64,000 nt of DNA from Butyrivibrio sp. (GTDB lineage Bacteria; Bacillota; Clostridia; Lachnospirales; Lachnospiraceae). Below the pieces are notes generated by a model. That model was not told the origin of the DNA. It did no database searches and saw nothing but the letters and a program-made list of their open reading frames with translations. The stretch lies in the NCBI GenBank assembly GCA_017470505.1, contig JAFUYO010000036.1, forward strand, positions 21,371 through 85,370, read 5' to 3'. Shown here in pieces: positions 56,153 to 64,000 of the stretch; the first letter of the stretch is position 1, and each line of letters starts with the position of its first letter. Both the position numbers and the translations under genes were made by a program.

Positions 56153-57304
56153 TCAAATCTTATATTTTCCCGAGAGGTAGGTGTAGGTCTCCTGCTCTGC
56201 AAGCAATATTGCATCCACGTCAGGATCATCCACTTTTCTGTGGTGCTCCATCGCCTCCTCTATCATTGAATAGATCTCGAGATAAGCAATATCGCCCTTT
56301 AAGAATCTCCTGACCGCCATCTCGTTGGCCGCGTTAAAGACAGTGGGCATGCTGCCCCCTGTCCTTGCTGCGTCAAAGGCGAGCTTAAGTCCCCGGAAAG
56401 TCTTGATATCAGGCTTTTCGAATGTAAGACTCCCCAGTTCAAAGAGGTCAAGCCTCTTTTCCGCCATAGGCCTTCTGTCCGGGTAAAAGAGCGCATACTG
56501 GATAGGAAGCTTCATATCAGGAACGCCGAGCTGGGCTATGACCGCTCCGTCCACAAACTGTACTGCGCTGTGGACTATGCTCTGGGGATGTACCACAACC
56601 TCGATGTTATCAAGACTCACATCAAACAGCCACCTTGCCTCCATGACTTCAAGTCCCTTGTTCACAAGGGACGAGGAGTCAATGGTTACCTTGGGACCCA
56701 TATCCCAGTTGGGGTGCTTAAGTGCATCCTGTGCCGTCATGGATGCCAACTCTTTTCGCTTTTTGCCCCTGAAGGGACCGCCGCTCGCAGTCAGGAGTAT
56801 CTTTTCAACCTTGTCACGAGGCTCCCCGCACAGAGACTGGAAAATAGCGCTGTGCTCCGAGTCGACAGGCAGCATCTTAACGCCCATCTTTTTAATAAGA
56901 GGCATTATGATGTGCCCCGCGCAGACGAGCGTCTCCTTGTTGGCAAGGGCAATGTCCTTGCCCGCCTCTATCGCCCTGATGGTCGGCCTTATCCCGATCA
57001 TTCCGACAACTGCAGTCAGCACCGTATCGGCCTCCGGAACGGATACAATTTCCAGAAGTCCGTCCATCCCGGCCATGACCTTTATGCCAAGGTCAGATAT
57101 CCTGTCCTGAAGCTCTTTGGCCGCATCGGAATCGTACATGCAGACGTAAGCGGGGTGAAACTCCCTGACCTGCTTCTCAACCTCGGCTGCCCTCTTGTTC
57201 GCAGCAAGTCCCACGACCTTAAGCTCACTCCTGTTGGCCCTCACAACGTCAAGTGTCTGGGTCCCGATGGACCCGGTGGAGCCCAGTAATACAATGTTTC
57301 TCAT
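56153..57304 (-). CDS. dxr: 1-deoxy-D-xylulose-5-phosphate reductoisomerase
   Basis: Dxr converts DXP to MEP with NADPH, the committed step of the MEP pathway and the target of fosmidomycin. The 383-residue protein starts with the NADPH motif VLLGSTGSIGTQTLDV, then IALANKETLVCAG, and the metal/substrate site LPVDSEHSAIFQ, with SLVNKGLEVMEA and HPQSIVHSAVQF. It lies 26 bases after the adenylate-forming enzyme gene. The cdsA and uppS genes that often precede dxr in Firmicutes are not here. Confidence 0.97.
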   Translation of the reverse strand: MRNIVLLGSTGSIGTQTLDVVRANRSELKVVGLAANKRAAEVEKQVREFHPAYVCMYDSDAAKELQDRISDLGIKVMAGMDGLLEIVSVPEADTVLTAVVGMIGIRPTIRAIEAGKDIALANKETLVCAGHIIMPLIKKMGVKMLPVDSEHSAIFQSLCGEPRDKVEKILLTASGGPFRGKKRKELASMTAQDALKHPNWDMGPKVTIDSSSLVNKGLEVMEARWLFDVSLDNIEVVVHPQSIVHSAVQFVDGAVIAQLGVPDMKLPIQYALFYPDRRPMAEKRLDLFELGSLTFEKPDIKTFRGLKLAFDAARTGGSMPTVFNAANEMAVRRFLKGDIAYLEIYSMIEEAMEHHRKVDDPDVDAILLAEQETYTYLSGKYKI

Positions 57305-57330: not shown

Positions 57331-59727
57331 TTAATCCAGTTCCTCAGCGTCAACATCAACGATATCATCATCATCGTCATCACCGAAGGTGGCGGGCTGC
57401 GGAGTGGCCATCTTCACAACCGCATCAAACATCTTGTCGCCAAATAATCTGTTCATCTCGATGACATTATGGAGCGTATCAAATGCGAGCTGATCCATGT
57501 AAGAGAACCACTGAGCAGATCTCTCGTGGAACATCGGCATCATACCCTGGAACATGCCGGGCATCATAAGCGGCATAGGCGGCATCATTCCGGGGAATGC
57601 CCTGTTCTTCATTCCAAACATCTTCTCCTCTATATCAGGCATGATTTCCAATAAACTCTGAAGCTCCGGTGACTTTTTGAAGGACTCAAACTGATTGGCC
57701 CAGGGGAACCACTGCTCCATCATACTTTGCATATTTTCCATCATCTTCCTGTTCATATCCCACTGTGATCTGAAATTCTTATATAGCATGTTGTTCTTCC
57801 CCTTCGGAGTCTTATTCTTAATTTCACGAATGATCTTTTTACCCGGAGTATTGTTTTTGATGTCGGCAGATATGCTGTCGAGAACCTGCTCGACGATGTC
57901 ACCGGTCTCATCCTGGCAGAGTGAGAGTGTAAAGTCTGAGAGCTGATCCTCACTGCGGACCTGCTCAACATTGTACACGTCTCCGGAGACCTCTCCCTTG
58001 TTGAGCTTGTACAGGTCGATCTTGCCGTTGGAGTTTCTGGGAAGGTCCTTCGCCAGCATTACCCTACTCGGGATATCATCCTCGGGGAGCTTTTTCTTTT
58101 CGATGAAGACCTTGCAGAGAGCATTTCGTACAACATCAAGCGGATCATCAGCCCCGTCACGGAGTTTGATGCAGAGCATCGGAATGGTATCATGCTGAAT
58201 CTTGTAGTATACAGGTACAATAGCGCAGCTCTCAATTTCCCTGAGGCGTGAAAACTCTGTCTCGACTTTGCCGGACTCATACTTCCTTCTGCCCGCATCG
58301 CGCATGAAGAAGCGGTTAGCCCGCCCGAGGTAGTGAATCCGCCCATCAGGATCCATGCGCACAAAATCGTTGGTGCACACGTAAGGCTTGTCATCAATGA
58401 TTTCAACCTTGATAACTTCTTTTCCATCCAGGGTCGAACCGGCCATGCAGGGAGCTGTCAGATAGAGAACGCCTTCTCCTCCCTTTCCCTCAGGTGCAAA
58501 GAATTGCTCTTTGTCTTCATCGTACAGCCTGATTGTGATTCCCGGCATCGGATAGCCAATCGATTCATCATCCAGATCCGGTGTGGAGAGGCAGCATGCG
58601 CCGGCCATCTCTGAGAGTCCGTAGCCGTTTAAGATTATCACGTTATCTCCTCCGTGGGAAGAAAGGAACTCGTGGAAGCGCCTCTTTTCTGCCGCAGATA
58701 CCGCCGTGCCTCCGAGTGCCACAAACTTCAGGCTGGAGAAATCAAAATCGGTATCCTCCGGAAGCTTCATCCATCTCTCCAGCATGTAGCTTGCGCTGAA
58801 CAGGAAGGAAATGTGATACGCCGAAATAGCCTTGTAGAACCACGGATTCAAGAATCCAAGCGGTATGGTGACCAGCGTTGCGCCCATTGCAAAGGGCAGA
58901 TGTACCTGGTCGATGATGCCGTAGGAATTGCTCAGATCCAGCATGGTCGCGGTCACAAGATTGTCGTAGGGAAGTGACAGATTCCTGATCATCATAAAGC
59001 TTGCCACTGCCTCATTCATCGCCAGATCCGACATAGGCACGGGCTTTCCCGTCCCGCTGGTAGTTCCGGTGGTATGCATGATCAGCGCATTTTCGTCTGT
59101 CTCCTGCAGGGCATAACGCACCTGACGGCCGCCGTAAGATGACAGCAGCGTTTCCATACAGATCGGACGAACCAGTGCCTTCATGGAAGCAAACTTAGCC
59201 TCCTGCATCGTTGTCAGCACCTGAATGGAGGTAGCGCCCTTAATTGTAACATGCAGAAGGATCACATTGTTAATTCCAAGCTCTTTCCGCTTAAGCATAA
59301 GCTCCCGGACCAGATCCGGCTGAGCCAGGTCATCAGTTATGATGAAATCCGTCAGTTTCTCCTGACGTATAGTCTCCTCGATACGCTCAAAGTTAAAGGC
59401 TGACCAGGACGCCACCAGAGAAACCTGCGCGCCCACCATATTGAGGCCGTAAAACGAAAAAGTAACCTCTGCACAGGTAGAACCCAGAACGCCTACACGG
59501 GCATGGTTCTCCTCCGTCATGCCCAGCTTGGTAAATACCGCGGCATAGCGCTCCCATTCCCTGAACATACGGCCATAAGTATACTTTTTGTCGCCGTCTA
59601 TAATTGCTGTCCTGTTCAGAGCCCTGCCATTCAGGCCACACAGCTCCCGAATATACTTCCAGGCCTTTTGGTTCTTATTAACTTTCCTTTTTTCTTCTGT
59701 TGCATCAAAAATACTTACGTTTTCCAT
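57331..59727 (-). CDS. Adenylate-forming (acyl-CoA synthetase-like) enzyme with Met-rich, acidic C-terminal extension
   Basis: The first 580 residues form an AMP-binding (ANL) enzyme: P-loop TTGTTSGTGKP near residue 225, LNGYGLSEMAG, TNDFVRMDPDG and the C-terminal catalytic lysine segment PRNSNGKIDLYKL. It should activate a carboxylic acid, fatty or aryl, as an acyl-AMP. The last 200 residues are novel to me: a helical region, a Met/Pro-rich stretch (FPGMMPPMPLMMPGM), another helical region and an acidic tail DDDDDDIVDVDAEE. No carrier-domain serine motif is seen. It leads the dxr-rseP-ispG-polC transcript from its own promoter. Confidence 0.82.
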   Translation of the reverse strand: MENVSIFDATEEKRKVNKNQKAWKYIRELCGLNGRALNRTAIIDGDKKYTYGRMFREWERYAAVFTKLGMTEENHARVGVLGSTCAEVTFSFYGLNMVGAQVSLVASWSAFNFERIEETIRQEKLTDFIITDDLAQPDLVRELMLKRKELGINNVILLHVTIKGATSIQVLTTMQEAKFASMKALVRPICMETLLSSYGGRQVRYALQETDENALIMHTTGTTSGTGKPVPMSDLAMNEAVASFMMIRNLSLPYDNLVTATMLDLSNSYGIIDQVHLPFAMGATLVTIPLGFLNPWFYKAISAYHISFLFSASYMLERWMKLPEDTDFDFSSLKFVALGGTAVSAAEKRRFHEFLSSHGGDNVIILNGYGLSEMAGACCLSTPDLDDESIGYPMPGITIRLYDEDKEQFFAPEGKGGEGVLYLTAPCMAGSTLDGKEVIKVEIIDDKPYVCTNDFVRMDPDGRIHYLGRANRFFMRDAGRRKYESGKVETEFSRLREIESCAIVPVYYKIQHDTIPMLCIKLRDGADDPLDVVRNALCKVFIEKKKLPEDDIPSRVMLAKDLPRNSNGKIDLYKLNKGEVSGDVYNVEQVRSEDQLSDFTLSLCQDETGDIVEQVLDSISADIKNNTPGKKIIREIKNKTPKGKNNMLYKNFRSQWDMNRKMMENMQSMMEQWFPWANQFESFKKSPELQSLLEIMPDIEEKMFGMKNRAFPGMMPPMPLMMPGMFQGMMPMFHERSAQWFSYMDQLAFDTLHNVIEMNRLFGDKMFDAVVKMATPQPATFGDDDDDDIVDVDAEELD

Positions 59728-59857: not shown

Positions 59858-60106
59858 TCACATTGTCACCGCTTCTCTGATGCTCCAGTACAGCACAAGT
59901 GTTATGTAAACGCCAAGCATTATTAAGAACAATCCCCTGCACAGCCAAAACGATATAAAAAAAATGACATATGAAATTCCAAAGAGCACCCTTACTACAT
60001 ACCGTTCACCAACAAATACGTATTTTAAAATATGGCAGGCTGTAAAGACCATATATAAAAAGAACACAATGATTGTCAGGATTGCTATTCTAAGCAGCTT
60101 ATACAT
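59858..60106 (-). CDS. Small membrane protein of the VirD4-ClpP cassette
   Basis: I do not recognise this 82-residue protein. It is almost wholly hydrophobic with two or three membrane helices: about residues 4-27, 37-55 and 57-75. A short loop with GERYVVR separates the first two. Its ATG directly follows the clpP-like stop (TGAATG), so translation is very likely coupled. It may anchor a partner; the upstream VirD4-like protein lacks its own membrane segment. Confidence 0.65.
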   Translation of the reverse strand: MYKLLRIAILTIIVFFLYMVFTACHILKYVFVGERYVVRVLFGISYVIFFISFWLCRGLFLIMLGVYITLVLYWSIREAVTM

Positions 60107-60706
60107 TCAGTCAATACTCATCGCAGGTGAAATCAGGTCACAGATTCCAAAAGAGATTGCCTCTTCGGCATTCATGTAATTGTCATACCTTGTCGCACTG
60201 TTTATCTCCTCAAGCGTCTTACCTGTATGACCGGCAAGAATCCCGTTTACAATATCCCTTGTCTCAAGGATTGAATCGGAGATATTTTTTATTGATGTGG
60301 CAGAGCCACCGGCTCCGCCTGATATCAGCGGTTCATGTATCATCACCTTGCTGTGCGGGAATATGAATCTGTGTCCCTTTTCGCCTCCTGCGAGGATGAT
60401 TGCTGCCATACTCGCTGCATAGCCTGAGCAGATCGTATTTATAGGAGCCTTGCACGCCTGCATCGCATCGTATATCAGAAGTCCTGCGTTCACCTCTCCC
60501 CCCAGGCTATTGATGTAGATGCTGACAGGGTCTGTGCTTTCATCTTCGAGAAACATAAGCTGGGACATAATACTGCCCGCGACATATGAATCAATATCAC
60601 CTTGTAAAAAAATCTTTCTATTCATGAGATGTCTTGTTGCCAGGCTGACCTCTCTTACGCCGTTTGAGCTTTCAACTTCAATGTATGGAAACCATTTTTC
60701 TGTCAT
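60107..60706 (-). CDS. ClpP-family serine protease next to a VirD4-like ATPase
   Basis: The 199-residue protein is a ClpP-fold (S14) protease. The catalytic triad is intact: Ser99 in CSGYAASMAA, His124 in HSKVMIHEPL and Asp175 in ATRYDNYMNAEEA. SIYINSLGGEVNAGLLIYDAM is the family core. The ATG at 60706 has GAGGAGG upstream, overlapping the end of the VirD4-like gene. No Clp ATPase gene is nearby. Housekeeping clpP usually sits with tig and clpX, so this is likely a second, accessory copy. TepA-like or phage-type roles are alternatives. Confidence 0.85.
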   Translation of the reverse strand: MTEKWFPYIEVESSNGVREVSLATRHLMNRKIFLQGDIDSYVAGSIMSQLMFLEDESTDPVSIYINSLGGEVNAGLLIYDAMQACKAPINTICSGYAASMAAIILAGGEKGHRFIFPHSKVMIHEPLISGGAGGSATSIKNISDSILETRDIVNGILAGHTGKTLEEINSATRYDNYMNAEEAISFGICDLISPAMSID

Positions 60707-60726
60707 ATTCAACTTCCTCCTCTTCA

Positions 60727-62187
60727 TCAGTAAAACATCCAGTCGTTGTCTGAGCCTAAACCTGTACCCGAACTATCATCTGCGTTCTTTTGTGCGCCAA
60801 CAGATGACGCAATTGAGTTCACCCTTTCCGGACACAGTCTGCGCTTAACAAAACGCCCCGGACTTATTTCATGCATTTCAATATTCTCTTCCTTCTTCTC
60901 TGCTTTTCCACGAAGTTTCTCGCGCAGCGTCTTTGTGTCCACACGCTGTTCTTTAGTTTCAACCGGCACAGTATATCCAAAGTCCTTTTCAAATTTCTCC
61001 AGATCTATACCTCTGCCGATTACAGGTGGCTCTCCGCGCCTGAAGATTATAGCAGTTCCCACCGGGAGGTTCAGAATCTTTTTTAGCGGAATGTCTGCTC
61101 TCTCAGAGACTCTCCGCGCAGTCTCAATGTCAGAGCCACCGAGATATACATATGTATCGCAATTACCTATCACAGTTTCCTTGTCATAGCCGTATGCATT
61201 TCCAAGCTGTGCTTCAGACTGTATCATCAACATCGTCGATATTCCTCTGGATCTGATTGAGGATATCATCCTGGGAAAATCACCGATTATGCAGTTGGTT
61301 GCAAAATCGTCCAATATAAACCTGACCGGCACCGGGAGAGTGTTATCTTTGCACTCCTTATCCGCGTATCTGCAAAGCTCATTTATCGCCTGAGTAAAAA
61401 AGAGATTAGCCAATGTATCAAGTGATCTGTCAGTGTCGCTCACAACAACAAACAGCGCTGTCTTTCTCTGCCCAATGCTTACGATGTCCACCTCATCTGA
61501 ACTCATCATATAGCTGATCTCTTCAGACGAGAATTCTCTGAGCTTGGACGTAAGTGATATAAGAATTGAGTCAAAAGTTTTATCCGGAGCAACTGCAACA
61601 TTTTTGTACTGCGCAATAGCATAACTATTTGGATATTTCATTTCTGCCTGATTCATCAGCTTGTCAAGACCGGATAAGCTTGAAGATATATTCTCATCGC
61701 AGCGTCTTCCAAGTTGCAGCAGTTTTTCAATGCTCTTAAAGTTATGTTCATCAGGGCGGCAGAACTCTAATACGTACGAGATCATTGCTGTGAGCAGCAT
61801 TGTGGCCGTCTGATCCCAGAATGGATCTCTGGTGCAAATCTCCTGATTCGCTATTACATGCGCTGCCTTGTAAATATCTCTTGGCTCTTTTATGTAGTTT
61901 AAAAAATTGTAGTGGGATGAATTCATAGGATCGGTGAAGTCGATTTTTTTAACTTCGTATCCCATCGACCTTAGATACTGTTCGTACTTGTGATACAGAT
62001 TGCCTTTTGGATCAGAGATGATATAACTGCCTGTCGCCAGAAGTATGTTGGGTGAAACAATCCCTCTTGTCTTTCCGCTTCCGGACGCGCCGACAACGAG
62101 AACGTTGTTATTGAGCTTCGTCTTTCGGCTGTCCATGCTGTACATCCGGTCTTCTGCAACTACCATTACTCCTTGTTGTTTGTCCAT
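60727..62187 (-). CDS. VirD4/TraG-like ATPase lacking an N-terminal membrane domain
   Basis: The 486-residue protein is a type IV coupling-protein-like ATPase. Walker A VVGASGSGKTRG starts at residue 31, ISDPKGNLYHKYE follows, and Walker B is PVRFILDDFAT near residue 290, with IQSEAQLGNAYG and TYVYLGGSDIETA typical of TraG/VirD4 proteins. Family members normally have about 100 residues of membrane domain before Walker A; here only 30 soluble residues precede it. No relaxase, VirB4 or other transfer gene is in the window. GGAGGTTGAACA precedes the ATG. It is followed at once by a ClpP-like protease gene. Confidence 0.88.
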   Translation of the reverse strand: MDKQQGVMVVAEDRMYSMDSRKTKLNNNVLVVGASGSGKTRGIVSPNILLATGSYIISDPKGNLYHKYEQYLRSMGYEVKKIDFTDPMNSSHYNFLNYIKEPRDIYKAAHVIANQEICTRDPFWDQTATMLLTAMISYVLEFCRPDEHNFKSIEKLLQLGRRCDENISSSLSGLDKLMNQAEMKYPNSYAIAQYKNVAVAPDKTFDSILISLTSKLREFSSEEISYMMSSDEVDIVSIGQRKTALFVVVSDTDRSLDTLANLFFTQAINELCRYADKECKDNTLPVPVRFILDDFATNCIIGDFPRMISSIRSRGISTMLMIQSEAQLGNAYGYDKETVIGNCDTYVYLGGSDIETARRVSERADIPLKKILNLPVGTAIIFRRGEPPVIGRGIDLEKFEKDFGYTVPVETKEQRVDTKTLREKLRGKAEKKEENIEMHEISPGRFVKRRLCPERVNSIASSVGAQKNADDSSGTGLGSDNDWMFY

Positions 62188-62305
62188 TGTTCAACCTCCG
62201 CAAATCAATCTGATTTTGTCTATTCACTTTTCTCTCATAACCAATATATCTCGAAACGGCAATTTGCATAACTGTCGCCAAAGTTTAGTCAGGAACATCC
62301 ATCAG

Positions 62306-62674
62306 TCATTTTCCTAAATCGAGCAGGGAAAAGAGTTCTAATGCCAGATTGCCGCGTTGACCGTCAACTGTGCGCTCGTAAAAGCAGAGCGAACGCCTTA
62401 CGTTCTTATCGTGCAAAACAGGAAGAAGGGGCTCATCGCCCCTTCCCTCTCTCTGAATTATATCGTCCATCGGTGTGTCAAACAAACTGCTGAGGACCAG
62501 CAGGTTATCGATGGTTGGCAGGCATTCCCCTCTCTGCCATTTAAAAATGGTGTTTTGAGAGCTGTGCATTATCTCAGCGAACTCCTCAACCTTCAGCTTG
62601 TTGCGGATTCTCAGTTCCCTGATCTTTCTGCCGGTTGCTTTCATGTCAACTTTTACTGAGTAGCTGTCAAACAT
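62306..62674 (-). CDS. XRE-family helix-turn-helix regulator
   Basis: This 122-residue protein has an N-terminal Cro/cI-type helix-turn-helix (about residues 12-66): IRELRIRNKLKVEEFAEIM then HSSQNTIFKWQRGECLPTIDNLLVLSSLF. The C-terminal 50 residues are charged and unassigned. AAGGAGGCAAAAC precedes the ATG. It lies 118 bases ahead of the VirD4-like gene on the same strand and is the obvious candidate regulator of that cassette. A good promoter lies upstream (62845-62872). Confidence 0.88.
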   Translation of the reverse strand: MFDSYSVKVDMKATGRKIRELRIRNKLKVEEFAEIMHSSQNTIFKWQRGECLPTIDNLLVLSSLFDTPMDDIIQREGRGDEPLLPVLHDKNVRRSLCFYERTVDGQRGNLALELFSLLDLGK

Positions 62675-62907: not shown

Positions 62908-63489
62908 TTATTTCTCTTTAGTTACTTCTTTGATTTTTTCCCCATCAAAATTTCTTTCAGACAGCAATTGCCTGACGTCAATCTGTCTATCCAGTATCCT
63001 GAGCGCCTTATCTGCAAGCGGCTCTATAAAACCGCCCGCTTTTGAGAAATAAATACTCTTCGCCAGAAAAGGCCCAAGCCTGTACTTCTTAAAATCTTCA
63101 AACACCACGTCATCAAGGATCACCAGTCCTGTTATGTTTTCATCCCTGTGTAGATAAAGCCATGTCATTATTTCACGCCCTCGATGATTACTGTAACCAT
63201 CCTTAGAATATCTGATAACCGGTGTCTCATCATAGATTTCCATTCCTCTTGCTTTGAGCCTTTCATTCAGATACTTAAGATGATCCGGAATTTTCTTCCC
63301 GTCTTTATCTTCACCTGCTCTCCAGGAGGAAGAAAGGACAATTTTAGTTTCATCTTTGATAGAGCTCTTCATTACAAGGCCAGACAGATTCCCAATGAAC
63401 CTCTCGTCCAGTCCAATCATTCCTTTGTACCTGTCTTTTGTCAGCGCACTGTTAAGCACGCCATCCACATCGAGGAAAATAATTCTCAT
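62908..63489 (-). CDS. HAD-superfamily hydrolase-like protein
   Basis: The 193-residue protein has the first HAD motif, IIFLDVDGVLN, with both catalytic aspartates, a motif II-like VLSSSWR, and an acidic LVILDDVVFEDF in the place of motif IV. The layout matches small HAD proteins sometimes associated with RNA-repair or phage-like contexts. The substrate is unknown. I use the ATG at 63489; GGGAGAG lies upstream and a GTG immediately precedes it. No operon partner is clear. Confidence 0.75.
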   Translation of the reverse strand: MRIIFLDVDGVLNSALTKDRYKGMIGLDERFIGNLSGLVMKSSIKDETKIVLSSSWRAGEDKDGKKIPDHLKYLNERLKARGMEIYDETPVIRYSKDGYSNHRGREIMTWLYLHRDENITGLVILDDVVFEDFKKYRLGPFLAKSIYFSKAGGFIEPLADKALRILDRQIDVRQLLSERNFDGEKIKEVTKEK

Positions 63490-63580
63490 CACGTTCTCTC
63501 CCTGTACTTAAATCTTTTGCAAACTGACTTGAAAGTTTATTCTTATGAAGTTTCATTCTCATTCGTCACATGAAAGTCAT

Positions 63581-63934: not shown

Positions 63935-64000
63935 TCAAATTAAATCCACCGTATTTTCAATGATCGCAGCAAGTCCTGCGGTCTTTTTTAATTTGTCATA
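63935..64000 (-). CDS. C-terminus of a gene running off the right edge
   Basis: A minus-strand reading frame enters at 64000 and ends with TGA at 63935-63937, giving about 21 residues (KLKKTAGLAAIIENTVDLI). It is open to the edge and has plausible composition. The same bases on the plus strand look like a weak terminator (CGCAG/CTGCG then TCTTTTTT), so the coding reading is uncertain. Confidence 0.35.
   Translation of the reverse strand, partial: YDKLKKTAGLAAIIENTVDLI

What the first reader, a model, noticed from the sequence alone, without database searches (positions are those of the whole stretch)
59858..62674. XRE - soluble VirD4-like ATPase - ClpP-family protease - tiny membrane protein cassette
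Seen: four minus-strand genes in close order, with the VirD4-like and ClpP-like genes nearly touching and the small membrane protein gene starting at TGAATG. The VirD4-like protein has Walker A at residue 31 and no membrane domain, and the protease has an intact Ser-His-Asp triad. Known: VirD4/TraG ATPases move DNA-protein complexes through type IV systems and normally carry their own membrane anchor; in some Gram-positive plasmids the anchor is a separate protein. ClpP needs an AAA+ partner. Inference: this may be a split coupling complex with a dedicated protease, a decayed conjugative element, or a new ATPase-protease system. No relaxase or VirB4 is present.
Basis: partly seen in the sequence, partly recalled or inferred. 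Interest (0 to 1): 0.72.

Follow-up and report, generated by a model that had tools for sequence, protein, structure and literature searches.

The report
ClpP protease paired with VirD4-like ATPase
Gut and rumen bacteria carry a small, apparently mobile gene pair that joins a ClpP-type protein shredder to a soluble cousin of the ATP-driven pump that bacteria use to push DNA into each other, which looks like an unrecognised ATP-dependent protease built with an unusual motor.

Summary
The four genes are real and at the stated places. The conserved unit is two of them: the soluble VirD4-like ATPase and the ClpP-like protease. Across 115 distinct loci of this VirD4 clan (Lachnospiraceae, Oscillospiraceae/Ruminococcus and unnamed relatives), 109 have the ClpP gene within 1.5 kb on the same strand, in either order. 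Of six exceptions, three are cut by contig ends, one has ClpP 1,563 bp away, and two have such a ClpP elsewhere in the genome. Controls: 0 of 20 full-length VirD4 loci, 0 of 30 other VirD4 loci. The ATPase lacks a membrane anchor and reads "DD" in Walker B (95 of 95). The protease stands apart from housekeeping ClpP, keeps the catalytic Ser (84 of 84), but has lost the docking-pocket aromatic (present in 1 of 84 against 19 of 19). Partner distances agree (rho 0.71) but not with the host's housekeeping ClpP (-0.06). Conjugation genes: 0 of 94 loci. Best reading: a self-contained ATP-dependent protease with a VirD4-type motor; contact between the two is inferred. The small membrane protein is not conserved; XRE, or a macrodomain-HTH protein, is a likely regulator.

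The parts
60727..62187 (-). soluble VirD4/TraG-like ATPase (CD1115-related, Walker A G33-T40, Walker B D293-D294), no membrane anchor; core gene 1
60107..60727 (-). ClpP-like serine protease (Ser106, His131, Asp182); probable true start 60706; core gene 2
62306..62674 (-). XRE-family (HTH_3) protein, probable regulator of the pair; same order XRE-VirD4-ClpP in L056, L038, L229
59858..60106 (-). 82-aa hydrophobic protein directly after ClpP (TGA|ATG); not conserved with the pair, probably accessory or local
62423..62447 (-). hairpin with T-rich tail inside the 3' part of the XRE ORF; possible terminator or attenuator before VirD4 (consensus match only; 4 found in the region against 2.4 in shuffles)
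62908..63492 (-). HAD_SAK_2 (HAD domain of RNA-repair proteins) gene upstream of XRE; relatives lie near the VirD4 of L057, L062 and L132; membership in the system not shown

Best explanation
The two core genes encode a self-contained, horizontally moving ATP-dependent protease. The soluble VirD4-like protein is expected to form a hexameric pumping ring, as VirD4/TrwB proteins do, but with the membrane anchor lost and the ring docked on a ClpP-type double ring instead of on a secretion channel; it would pull a protein substrate through and feed it to the ClpP chamber, where Ser-His-Asp sites cut it. The neighbouring XRE protein, or in the Ruminococcus-type branch a macrodomain-HTH protein, would switch the operon in response to a signal, in that branch possibly an NAD-derived one. 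Shown: linkage in 109 of 115 loci, each partner a clan of its own, co-inheritance of the two that does not follow the housekeeping ClpP of the host, intact active sites in most members, loss of the AAA+ docking aromatic and of a conserved Arg, absence of conjugation genes from the loci examined. Inferred: physical contact, direction of pumping, hexamer, substrate, regulation, and the biological role (protein turnover under stress, or conflict with mobile elements).
For: Linkage 109 of 115 distinct loci within 1.5 kb, same strand; median gap 13 bp and both gene orders, 76 ClpP-VirD4 and 9 VirD4-ClpP of 85 measured. The two exceptions with complete loci have a ClpP of this type elsewhere in the genome. 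Controls: 0 of 20 full-length VirD4 loci and 0 of 30 other VirD4 loci, 24 of which show no N-terminal membrane segment. One-clan trees for both partners (SH-aLRT 100; 100/100). VirD4-ClpP distance correlation 0.71 in 17 genomes (0 of 2000 permutations) against -0.06 for VirD4-housekeeping ClpP. Docking-pocket aromatic (B. subtilis F82 equivalent; role from passages of PMC11005422; equivalence by my alignment) present in 19 of 19 housekeeping and 1 of 84 module ClpPs; Arg177 in 19 of 19 and 0 of 84. All 17 genomes tested also have a ClpP of housekeeping score. No hydrophobic segment before Walker A in 0 of 90 members where Walker A was found by pattern, against 19 of 20 full-length ones that have it. 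Predicted ClpP fold, TM about 0.84-0.90 to the 50 listed solved ClpPs. In Butyrivibrio L228 the detached ClpP stands beside GrpE and Hsp70 genes, a single case. VirD4-family pumps move proteins (established knowledge).
Against: No physical contact was tested: no complex was modelled and the VirD4 model could not be run. No ClpP-VirD4 fusion in 80 loci. Walker B Glu is replaced by Asp in 95 of 95, which could slow or abolish ATP hydrolysis. Catalytic His is lost in 4 of 84 and Asp in 7 of 84 ClpPs, so some act without proteolysis or are decaying. The Tyr62 equivalent of the docking pocket is mostly kept (Y 54, F 10 of 84), so docking of a Clp ATPase is not excluded. No stretch of the VirD4 alignment is a proven ClpP-docking loop; the family consensus MP[VI]G (LPVG at window residues 374-377) is only a candidate. 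A defence role finds no support in neighbour enrichment.
Confidence: 0.52

Rival explanations
1. Sensor-effector pair: the VirD4-like ring binds DNA or a nucleoprotein of an invading element (as coupling proteins do) and on binding activates or delivers the ClpP-like protease, which then cuts a few host or invader proteins; the ATPase is a switch and not an unfoldase.
For: T4CP ancestry is DNA-handling (NF045973); HerA-DUF4297 is a two-component ATPase-effector defence complex (title and start of abstract of PMC11291478 in the listing; ring geometry recalled); the pair does not follow the host; some loci lie near RAMP genes, and Csx20/CARF models are matched in the near set; Walker B DD may favour slow turnover.
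Against: Immediate neighbours are not richer in defence models than genes more than 5.5 kb away (74 against 176 PADLOC families matched in 130 sampled proteins each); ClpP rings normally need an unfoldase to admit folded substrates (established knowledge).
Confidence: 0.24
2. Adaptor model: the module ClpP still works with the host's ClpX or ClpC, and the VirD4-like protein only brings the substrate.
For: Tyr62 equivalent kept in most (Y or F in 64 of 84); ClpP fold ordinary.
Against: F82-equivalent aromatic absent in 83 of 84 and Arg177 absent in 84 of 84; module ClpP distances do not follow the housekeeping ClpP of the host (0.05).
Confidence: 0.12
3. Split conjugative coupling complex or decayed conjugative element, with the 82-aa protein as membrane anchor and ClpP incidental.
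For: VirD4 family name and homology; small membrane protein next door.
Against: PrgI, VirB4-like, MobA/MobL, Maff2, Relaxase and VirB6-like families (10, 9, 8, 7, 4 and 13 of 30 control loci) found in 0 of 94 module loci; no relative of the 82-aa protein in 94 loci; conserved active sites and long-term linkage are not decay.
Confidence: 0.03

Closest known systems
ClpXP / ClpAP / ClpCP proteases
   Same: ClpP fold, Ser-His-Asp triad, N-terminal ESxxG region; an ATPase gene as partner
   Different: Partner is a VirD4/TraG-type ATPase, not AAA+; docking-pocket aromatic and Arg177 replaced; a two-gene unit that does not follow the host and, in the 17 genomes tested, stands beside a separate housekeeping ClpP
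VirD4/TraG coupling proteins, CD1115 family (NCBIfam NF045973)
   Same: NTPase core with Walker A, motif Q323 and alignment to the family model (10-364 of 486 residues)
   Different: No membrane anchor, Walker B DD for DE, no conjugation genes nearby, ClpP partner
HerA-DUF4297 and HerA-Sir2 two-component defence complexes; archaeal HerA-NurA
   Same: Two-gene unit of a pumping-class ATPase and an effector enzyme (design principle; HerA-DUF4297 and HerA-NurA from the listing, HerA-Sir2 and ring geometry recalled)
   Different: Enzyme is a ClpP-type protease and the ATPase is VirD4-like; no defence activity known
ClpP-related phage head-maturation proteases (PHROG 94 and others)
   Same: ClpP fold, hits down to E=4.6e-41
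   Different: Head-maturation model NF045542 not reached (80.5 against 120 bits) while ATP-dependent ClpP models score higher; no capsid genes noticed nearby
Soluble VirD4-like ATPases of L232, L240-L243 (this work)
   Same: VirD4-like, 4 of 5 without a hydrophobic stretch by my measure; one of five (L232) has a ClpP in the same operon
   Different: Walker B DE in the four copies outside L232, only 166-225 bits to this family's model, and another ~260-305 aa gene beside it

Membership tests
ClpP (peptidase S14) | PF00574 fold and score over cut-off | tested here: met
   184 bits against 20.2; model TM about 0.84-0.90 to the listed solved ClpPs
ClpP (peptidase S14) | Ser-His-Asp triad | tested here: met
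   Window intact; family Ser 84/84, His 80/84, Asp 77/84
Housekeeping ClpP equivalog (TIGR00493) | Score over equivalog cut-off, clusters with housekeeping ClpP | tested here: not met
   174 bits against 308.6; separate clan, 100/100
ClpXP-type AAA+ protease | AAA+ unfoldase partner with LGF loop and matching ClpP pocket | tested here: not met
   Linked ATPase is T4SS-DNA_transf, not AAA+; pocket aromatic absent in 83 of 84; actual docking not tested
VirD4-like conjugal transfer protein CD1115 (NF045973) | Score over equivalog cut-off | tested here: met
   336 against 250 bits
VirD4 type IV coupling protein (as a conjugation component) | N-terminal membrane anchor | tested here: not met
   Hydrophobic segment before Walker A in 0 of 90 members with a Walker A pattern (95 examined), 19 of 20 controls
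VirD4 type IV coupling protein (as a conjugation component) | Linked relaxase and mating-pair genes | tested here: not met
   0 of 94 loci; right flank of the window itself cannot be read
HerA-effector two-component defence complex | HerA ATPase plus effector with anti-phage activity | not testable with these tools
   No HerA model among the matches; activity needs an experiment
Known anti-phage systems of PADLOC-DB 2.0.0 | Match of the core proteins to a system's models | tested here: not met
   ClpP none; VirD4 only mad8, E=8e-8, 30 bits

The most novel reading that the evidence does not exclude
A class of energy-dependent protease in which the unfolding motor is not AAA+ but a VirD4/TraG-type pumping ATPase recruited from conjugation machinery, re-targeted from a secretion channel to a ClpP double ring, spread between gut bacteria as a two-gene cassette, and in one branch governed by a macrodomain-HTH sensor of ADP-ribose-like signals.
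Probability: 0.45. Interest if true: 0.9.

Novelty: new variant of a known kind. Interest (0 to 1): 0.74.

Why it matters
Every ClpP partner known to me is an AAA+ ring (recalled). If a VirD4-type ring can feed ClpP, then secretion pumps and proteolytic unfoldases are interchangeable modules, which makes a long-standing question directly testable: whether coupling proteins unfold and thread proteins by themselves. The docking change in ClpP gives a natural experiment on how ring ATPases and peptidases recognise each other. By their record titles some carriers are isolates (Butyrivibrio sp. CB08, XPD2006; Ruminococcus flavefaciens Y1), so it can be studied. Model-based annotation as 'conjugal transfer protein' plus 'ATP-dependent Clp protease' hides it.

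Tried and rejected
Chance neighbourhood: rejected by the counts and controls. Association with any anchor-less VirD4: rejected, 24 of the 30 control loci show no N-terminal membrane segment and none of the 30 has ClpP. Conjugation remnant: rejected. Housekeeping ClpP displaced: rejected. Gene fusion as direct proof of contact: 0 of 80. C-terminal docking motif on VirD4 (window ends in WMFY): not shared by the 20 relatives. Small membrane protein as conserved partner: 0 of 94; an unrelated ~113-148 aa membrane protein stands upstream of ClpP in 7 loci, so a membrane partner could recur by different routes, unproven. Defence-island enrichment: not found (130 of 367 near and 130 of 188 far proteins sampled). 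Viral contigs with single proteins as queries: nothing confirmed. Phage records: 39 with a relative, all under 60% identity, not examined for ClpP. Plasmids: 1,763 records; 10 of the 15 listed are annotated CD1115 family; not examined for ClpP. Papers: the ten searches listed nothing that names a ClpP-VirD4 pair; I saw listings, and passages of PMC7824862, PMC11005422, PMC6669625 and PMC10300472 (both words occur there, apart and unrelated). The library holds only openly licensed papers; Burroughs and Aravind 2016 (recalled as possibly relevant) is not held. A second VirD4-like family (L232, L240-L243) has ClpP in 1 of 5, which neither refutes nor proves.

Selection to bear in mind: the 20 loci were chosen by eye's capped list as short open frames; 15 other loci of that list, mostly short open frames too, were fetched later and none has ClpP. 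Three of its 80 (L068, L071, L108) are duplicates of L037, L038, L036. L080, L117 and L134 dropped out of the neighbourhood, tree and residue counts because my ORF picker kept an antisense ORF; the three module loci listed under family 0 are those antisense ORFs. The same call has one module locus (L057) with a 607-aa family that looks by eye like a reverse transcriptase. L169, L204, L205, L209, L211, L216 and L219 are duplicates and are not in the 115. In L040 the ClpP is cut by the contig end. Walker B of L166 and of two control loci (L188, L189) was not matched by my pattern. The VirD4 tree holds 94 of the 95 rows. The window's assembly is 84% complete.
Full report
What is there. The window is G000:C14:21371-85370 of an 84%-complete genome; the contig ends at window base 64000, so the right flank cannot be read. 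The ATPase hits NCBIfam NF045973 (VirD4-like conjugal transfer protein, CD1115 family) at 336 bits against a cut-off of 250 and Pfam T4SS-DNA_transf at 1.3e-44; the protease hits PF00574 at 4.1e-54 but stays below the cut-off of all 11 NCBIfam models it matches. The 82-aa protein and the 105-aa ORF have no Pfam match; the gene at 62908-63492 is HAD_SAK_2. The genome search found one further ClpP (294 bits) and one further VirD4 (674-aa open frame).

Linkage. VirD4 relatives occur in 122 of 299 genomes drawn from the family. I took 20 loci with short open frames; 20 of 20 carry a ClpP-like gene beside the VirD4-like gene, one of them cut by the contig end. A scan of named genomes with their alignment gave the best 80 of 513 relatives; 74 of 80 have ClpP within 1.5 kb on the same strand. 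Later draws gave 5 of 5 and 19 of 19. After removing duplicates the total is 109 of 115 distinct loci: window 1 of 1, 20 of 20, 71 of 77, 4 of 4, 13 of 13. Of the six exceptions L070, L106 and L132 are cut by contig ends, L090 has ClpP 1,563 bp off behind another gene, and L057 and L079 lack it locally; in the genome of L057 an XRE-VirD4-ClpP copy sits on another contig (L229), and in that of L079 a ClpP of this type lies about 125 kb away on the same contig. Gene order is ClpP-VirD4 in 76 and VirD4-ClpP in 9 of 85 measured, with a median gap of 13 bp, so the link survives inversion of order. The 95 aligned VirD4s fall into 85 clusters at 80% identity, median pairwise identity 43%, so this is not a handful of copies.

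Controls. No ClpP lies within 1.5 kb of 20 full-length VirD4 genes, nor in stretches of 5.5-9.5 kb around 30 other VirD4 genes, 28 of which show Walker B DE by my pattern and 24 of which show no N-terminal membrane segment (one locus is shared). Loss of the anchor alone therefore does not bring ClpP; this particular clan does.

The ATPase. Of the 95 members, 90 matched my Walker A pattern and 0 of these 90 have a hydrophobic segment before it, against 19 of 20 full-length relatives; 1 of 95 has such a segment anywhere. Walker B reads DD in 95 of 95 against DE in 20 of 20. In the tree (94 members, 20 full-length) the members form one side of a fully supported, long branch (SH-aLRT 100, 1.06 changes per column). 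Solved relatives found by sequence profile are Cag5 (8dol, 6e-15) and, weakly, TrwB (1e9r and others, 0.001); the hexameric pump is inferred from that family.

The protease. Ser is kept in 84 of 84, His in 80, Asp in 77. The aromatic that forms the AAA+ docking pocket with Tyr62 (F82 in B. subtilis; PMC11005422, passages read; the equivalence to column 89 is my alignment) is Tyr or Phe in 19 of 19 housekeeping and in 1 of 84 module ClpPs (mostly Gly, Ser, Ala). Tyr62 is kept as Tyr or Phe in 64 of 84. The Arg of the ERD stretch (recalled as part of the contact between the two rings) is kept in 19 of 19 and in 0 of 84, where Phe or Tyr stands in 64. All 17 module-bearing genomes tested also hold a ClpP at 278-299 bits. 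The window protein is predicted with pLDDT 89.8 and matches solved ClpPs with TM about 0.84-0.90 in the 50 rows listed.

Co-inheritance. Pairwise distances of the two partners correlate over 84 loci (Spearman 0.73, 0 of 500 permutations) and over 17 genomes (0.71, 0 of 2000). In those 17 genomes VirD4 against housekeeping ClpP gives -0.06 (1386 of 2000 permutations as high) and module ClpP against housekeeping ClpP 0.05 (824 of 2000). Taking housekeeping ClpP as the measure of the host, the pair is inherited together and not with its host; horizontal movement is the inference.

Surroundings. By eye and by Pfam, neighbours are mostly ordinary chromosomal genes, with some signs of mobile DNA: Resolvase in 4 and phage antirepressor (ANT) in 2 of 130 sampled near neighbours, and a resolvase-like gene cluster in 7 of 94 loci. 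Gene families that recur around other VirD4 genes, identified by Pfam as PrgI, VirB4-like (P-loop_TraG), MobA/MobL, Maff2 and Relaxase and, below its cut-off, VirB6-like (10, 9, 8, 7, 4 and 13 of 30 control loci), were found in 0 of 94 module loci. A relative of the window's XRE lies in 18 of the 80 named loci, three of them duplicates. In 22 of 94 loci, 21 of them in one 34-row branch of the VirD4 tree whose titles are largely Ruminococcus, Oscillospiraceae and Clostridia, a different gene stands there, 20 times upstream on the same strand: a macrodomain (Pfam E=1e-28 in L055, E=2e-4 and just under the cut-off in L082) followed by a C-terminal HTH (Pfam HTH_3 E=3e-5 in L055, weak XRE-profile matches in others). 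I read both as the operon's regulator, the second with a built-in sensor for an ADP-ribose-like ligand. Single or few loci add KptA, ADP-ribosylglycohydrolase with a nucleotidyltransferase, zeta-toxin and VWA genes, HAD_SAK_2, metallophosphoesterase, WYL and CRISPR-RAMP genes. This has the flavour of RNA-repair and conflict loci, but a comparison of near and far neighbours in PADLOC shows no enrichment near the pair (74 against 176 families), so I do not claim a defence role.

Mechanism. The simplest account of a tightly linked, co-inherited pair of a soluble pumping-class ATPase and a ClpP whose AAA+ pocket has changed is that the ATPase is the ClpP's motor. Binding, geometry, substrate and signal are untested. 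The rivals are a DNA-sensing switch for the protease, or an adaptor working with host ClpX/ClpC. The DD Walker B, the kept Tyr62 and the few active-site losses are the facts that fit least well.

Novelty. Each protein belongs to a known family by score; the pair fails defining features of conjugation coupling proteins (anchor, conjugation genes) and of Clp AAA+ proteases (AAA+ partner, intact pocket). The nearest design is HerA with an effector enzyme (HerA-DUF4297; listing). Ten text searches of the held open-access library found no description (of which 44 and 114 had other aims); two listed papers that hold both words do not link them (passages).

Noticed in passing
L232:3712-6623 and L240-L243: A second family of VirD4-like ATPases (Walker B DE in the four copies outside L232; 4 of 5 without a hydrophobic stretch) with a ~260-305 aa gene beside it, whose likeness between loci was not tested; in L232 a ClpP gene heads the same operon, 1 of 5.
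   Followed up: partly
L118, L120, L121, L122, L124, L126, L130: An unrelated ~113-148 aa multi-pass membrane protein directly upstream of ClpP in one branch; a ~550-aa unknown gene (cluster 18) lies nearby in L118, L122, L125, L126, L130.
   Followed up: partly
L096, L104, L118, L124, L126, L129, L130: A resolvase-like (serine recombinase) gene within 3.5 kb of the pair in seven loci, six times upstream on the same strand; a possible vehicle for its spread.
   Followed up: no
L060, L061, L063, L066, L112: A branch whose ClpPs lack the catalytic His and/or Asp although the pair is kept; L063 has VirD4-ClpP-VirD4. Possible non-proteolytic or decaying forms.
   Followed up: partly
L228:4824-11166: Detached module-type ClpP of a Butyrivibrio (genome of L079) in line with GrpE, Hsp70, two unknown genes and a uridine-kinase-like gene.
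   Followed up: partly
L055:11899-14388: Zeta-toxin-like, VWA and macrodomain-HTH genes in a row near the pair.
   Followed up: partly
L171-L177, L181-L184: Short VirD4-like proteins (314-530 aa) with no N-terminal membrane segment and Walker B DE, without ClpP, in genomes of other families; function not examined.
   Followed up: no
window 57331-59727 (-): AMP-binding (acyl-CoA ligase-like) protein with an unusual Met-rich and Asp-rich C-terminal extension, next to a gene at 56153-57304 that looks like dxr (by eye).
   Followed up: no
window 62423-62447 (-): Hairpin within the end of the XRE coding sequence, at a 'RGDEPLLP' stretch shared with L056.
   Followed up: no
L094:6882-7247, L087, L047, L075: A small protein family in four loci; the PADLOC matches of the near set include Csx20/CARF models (which member is not told), and RAMP-like genes lie in L094, L045 and L047.
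   Followed up: no
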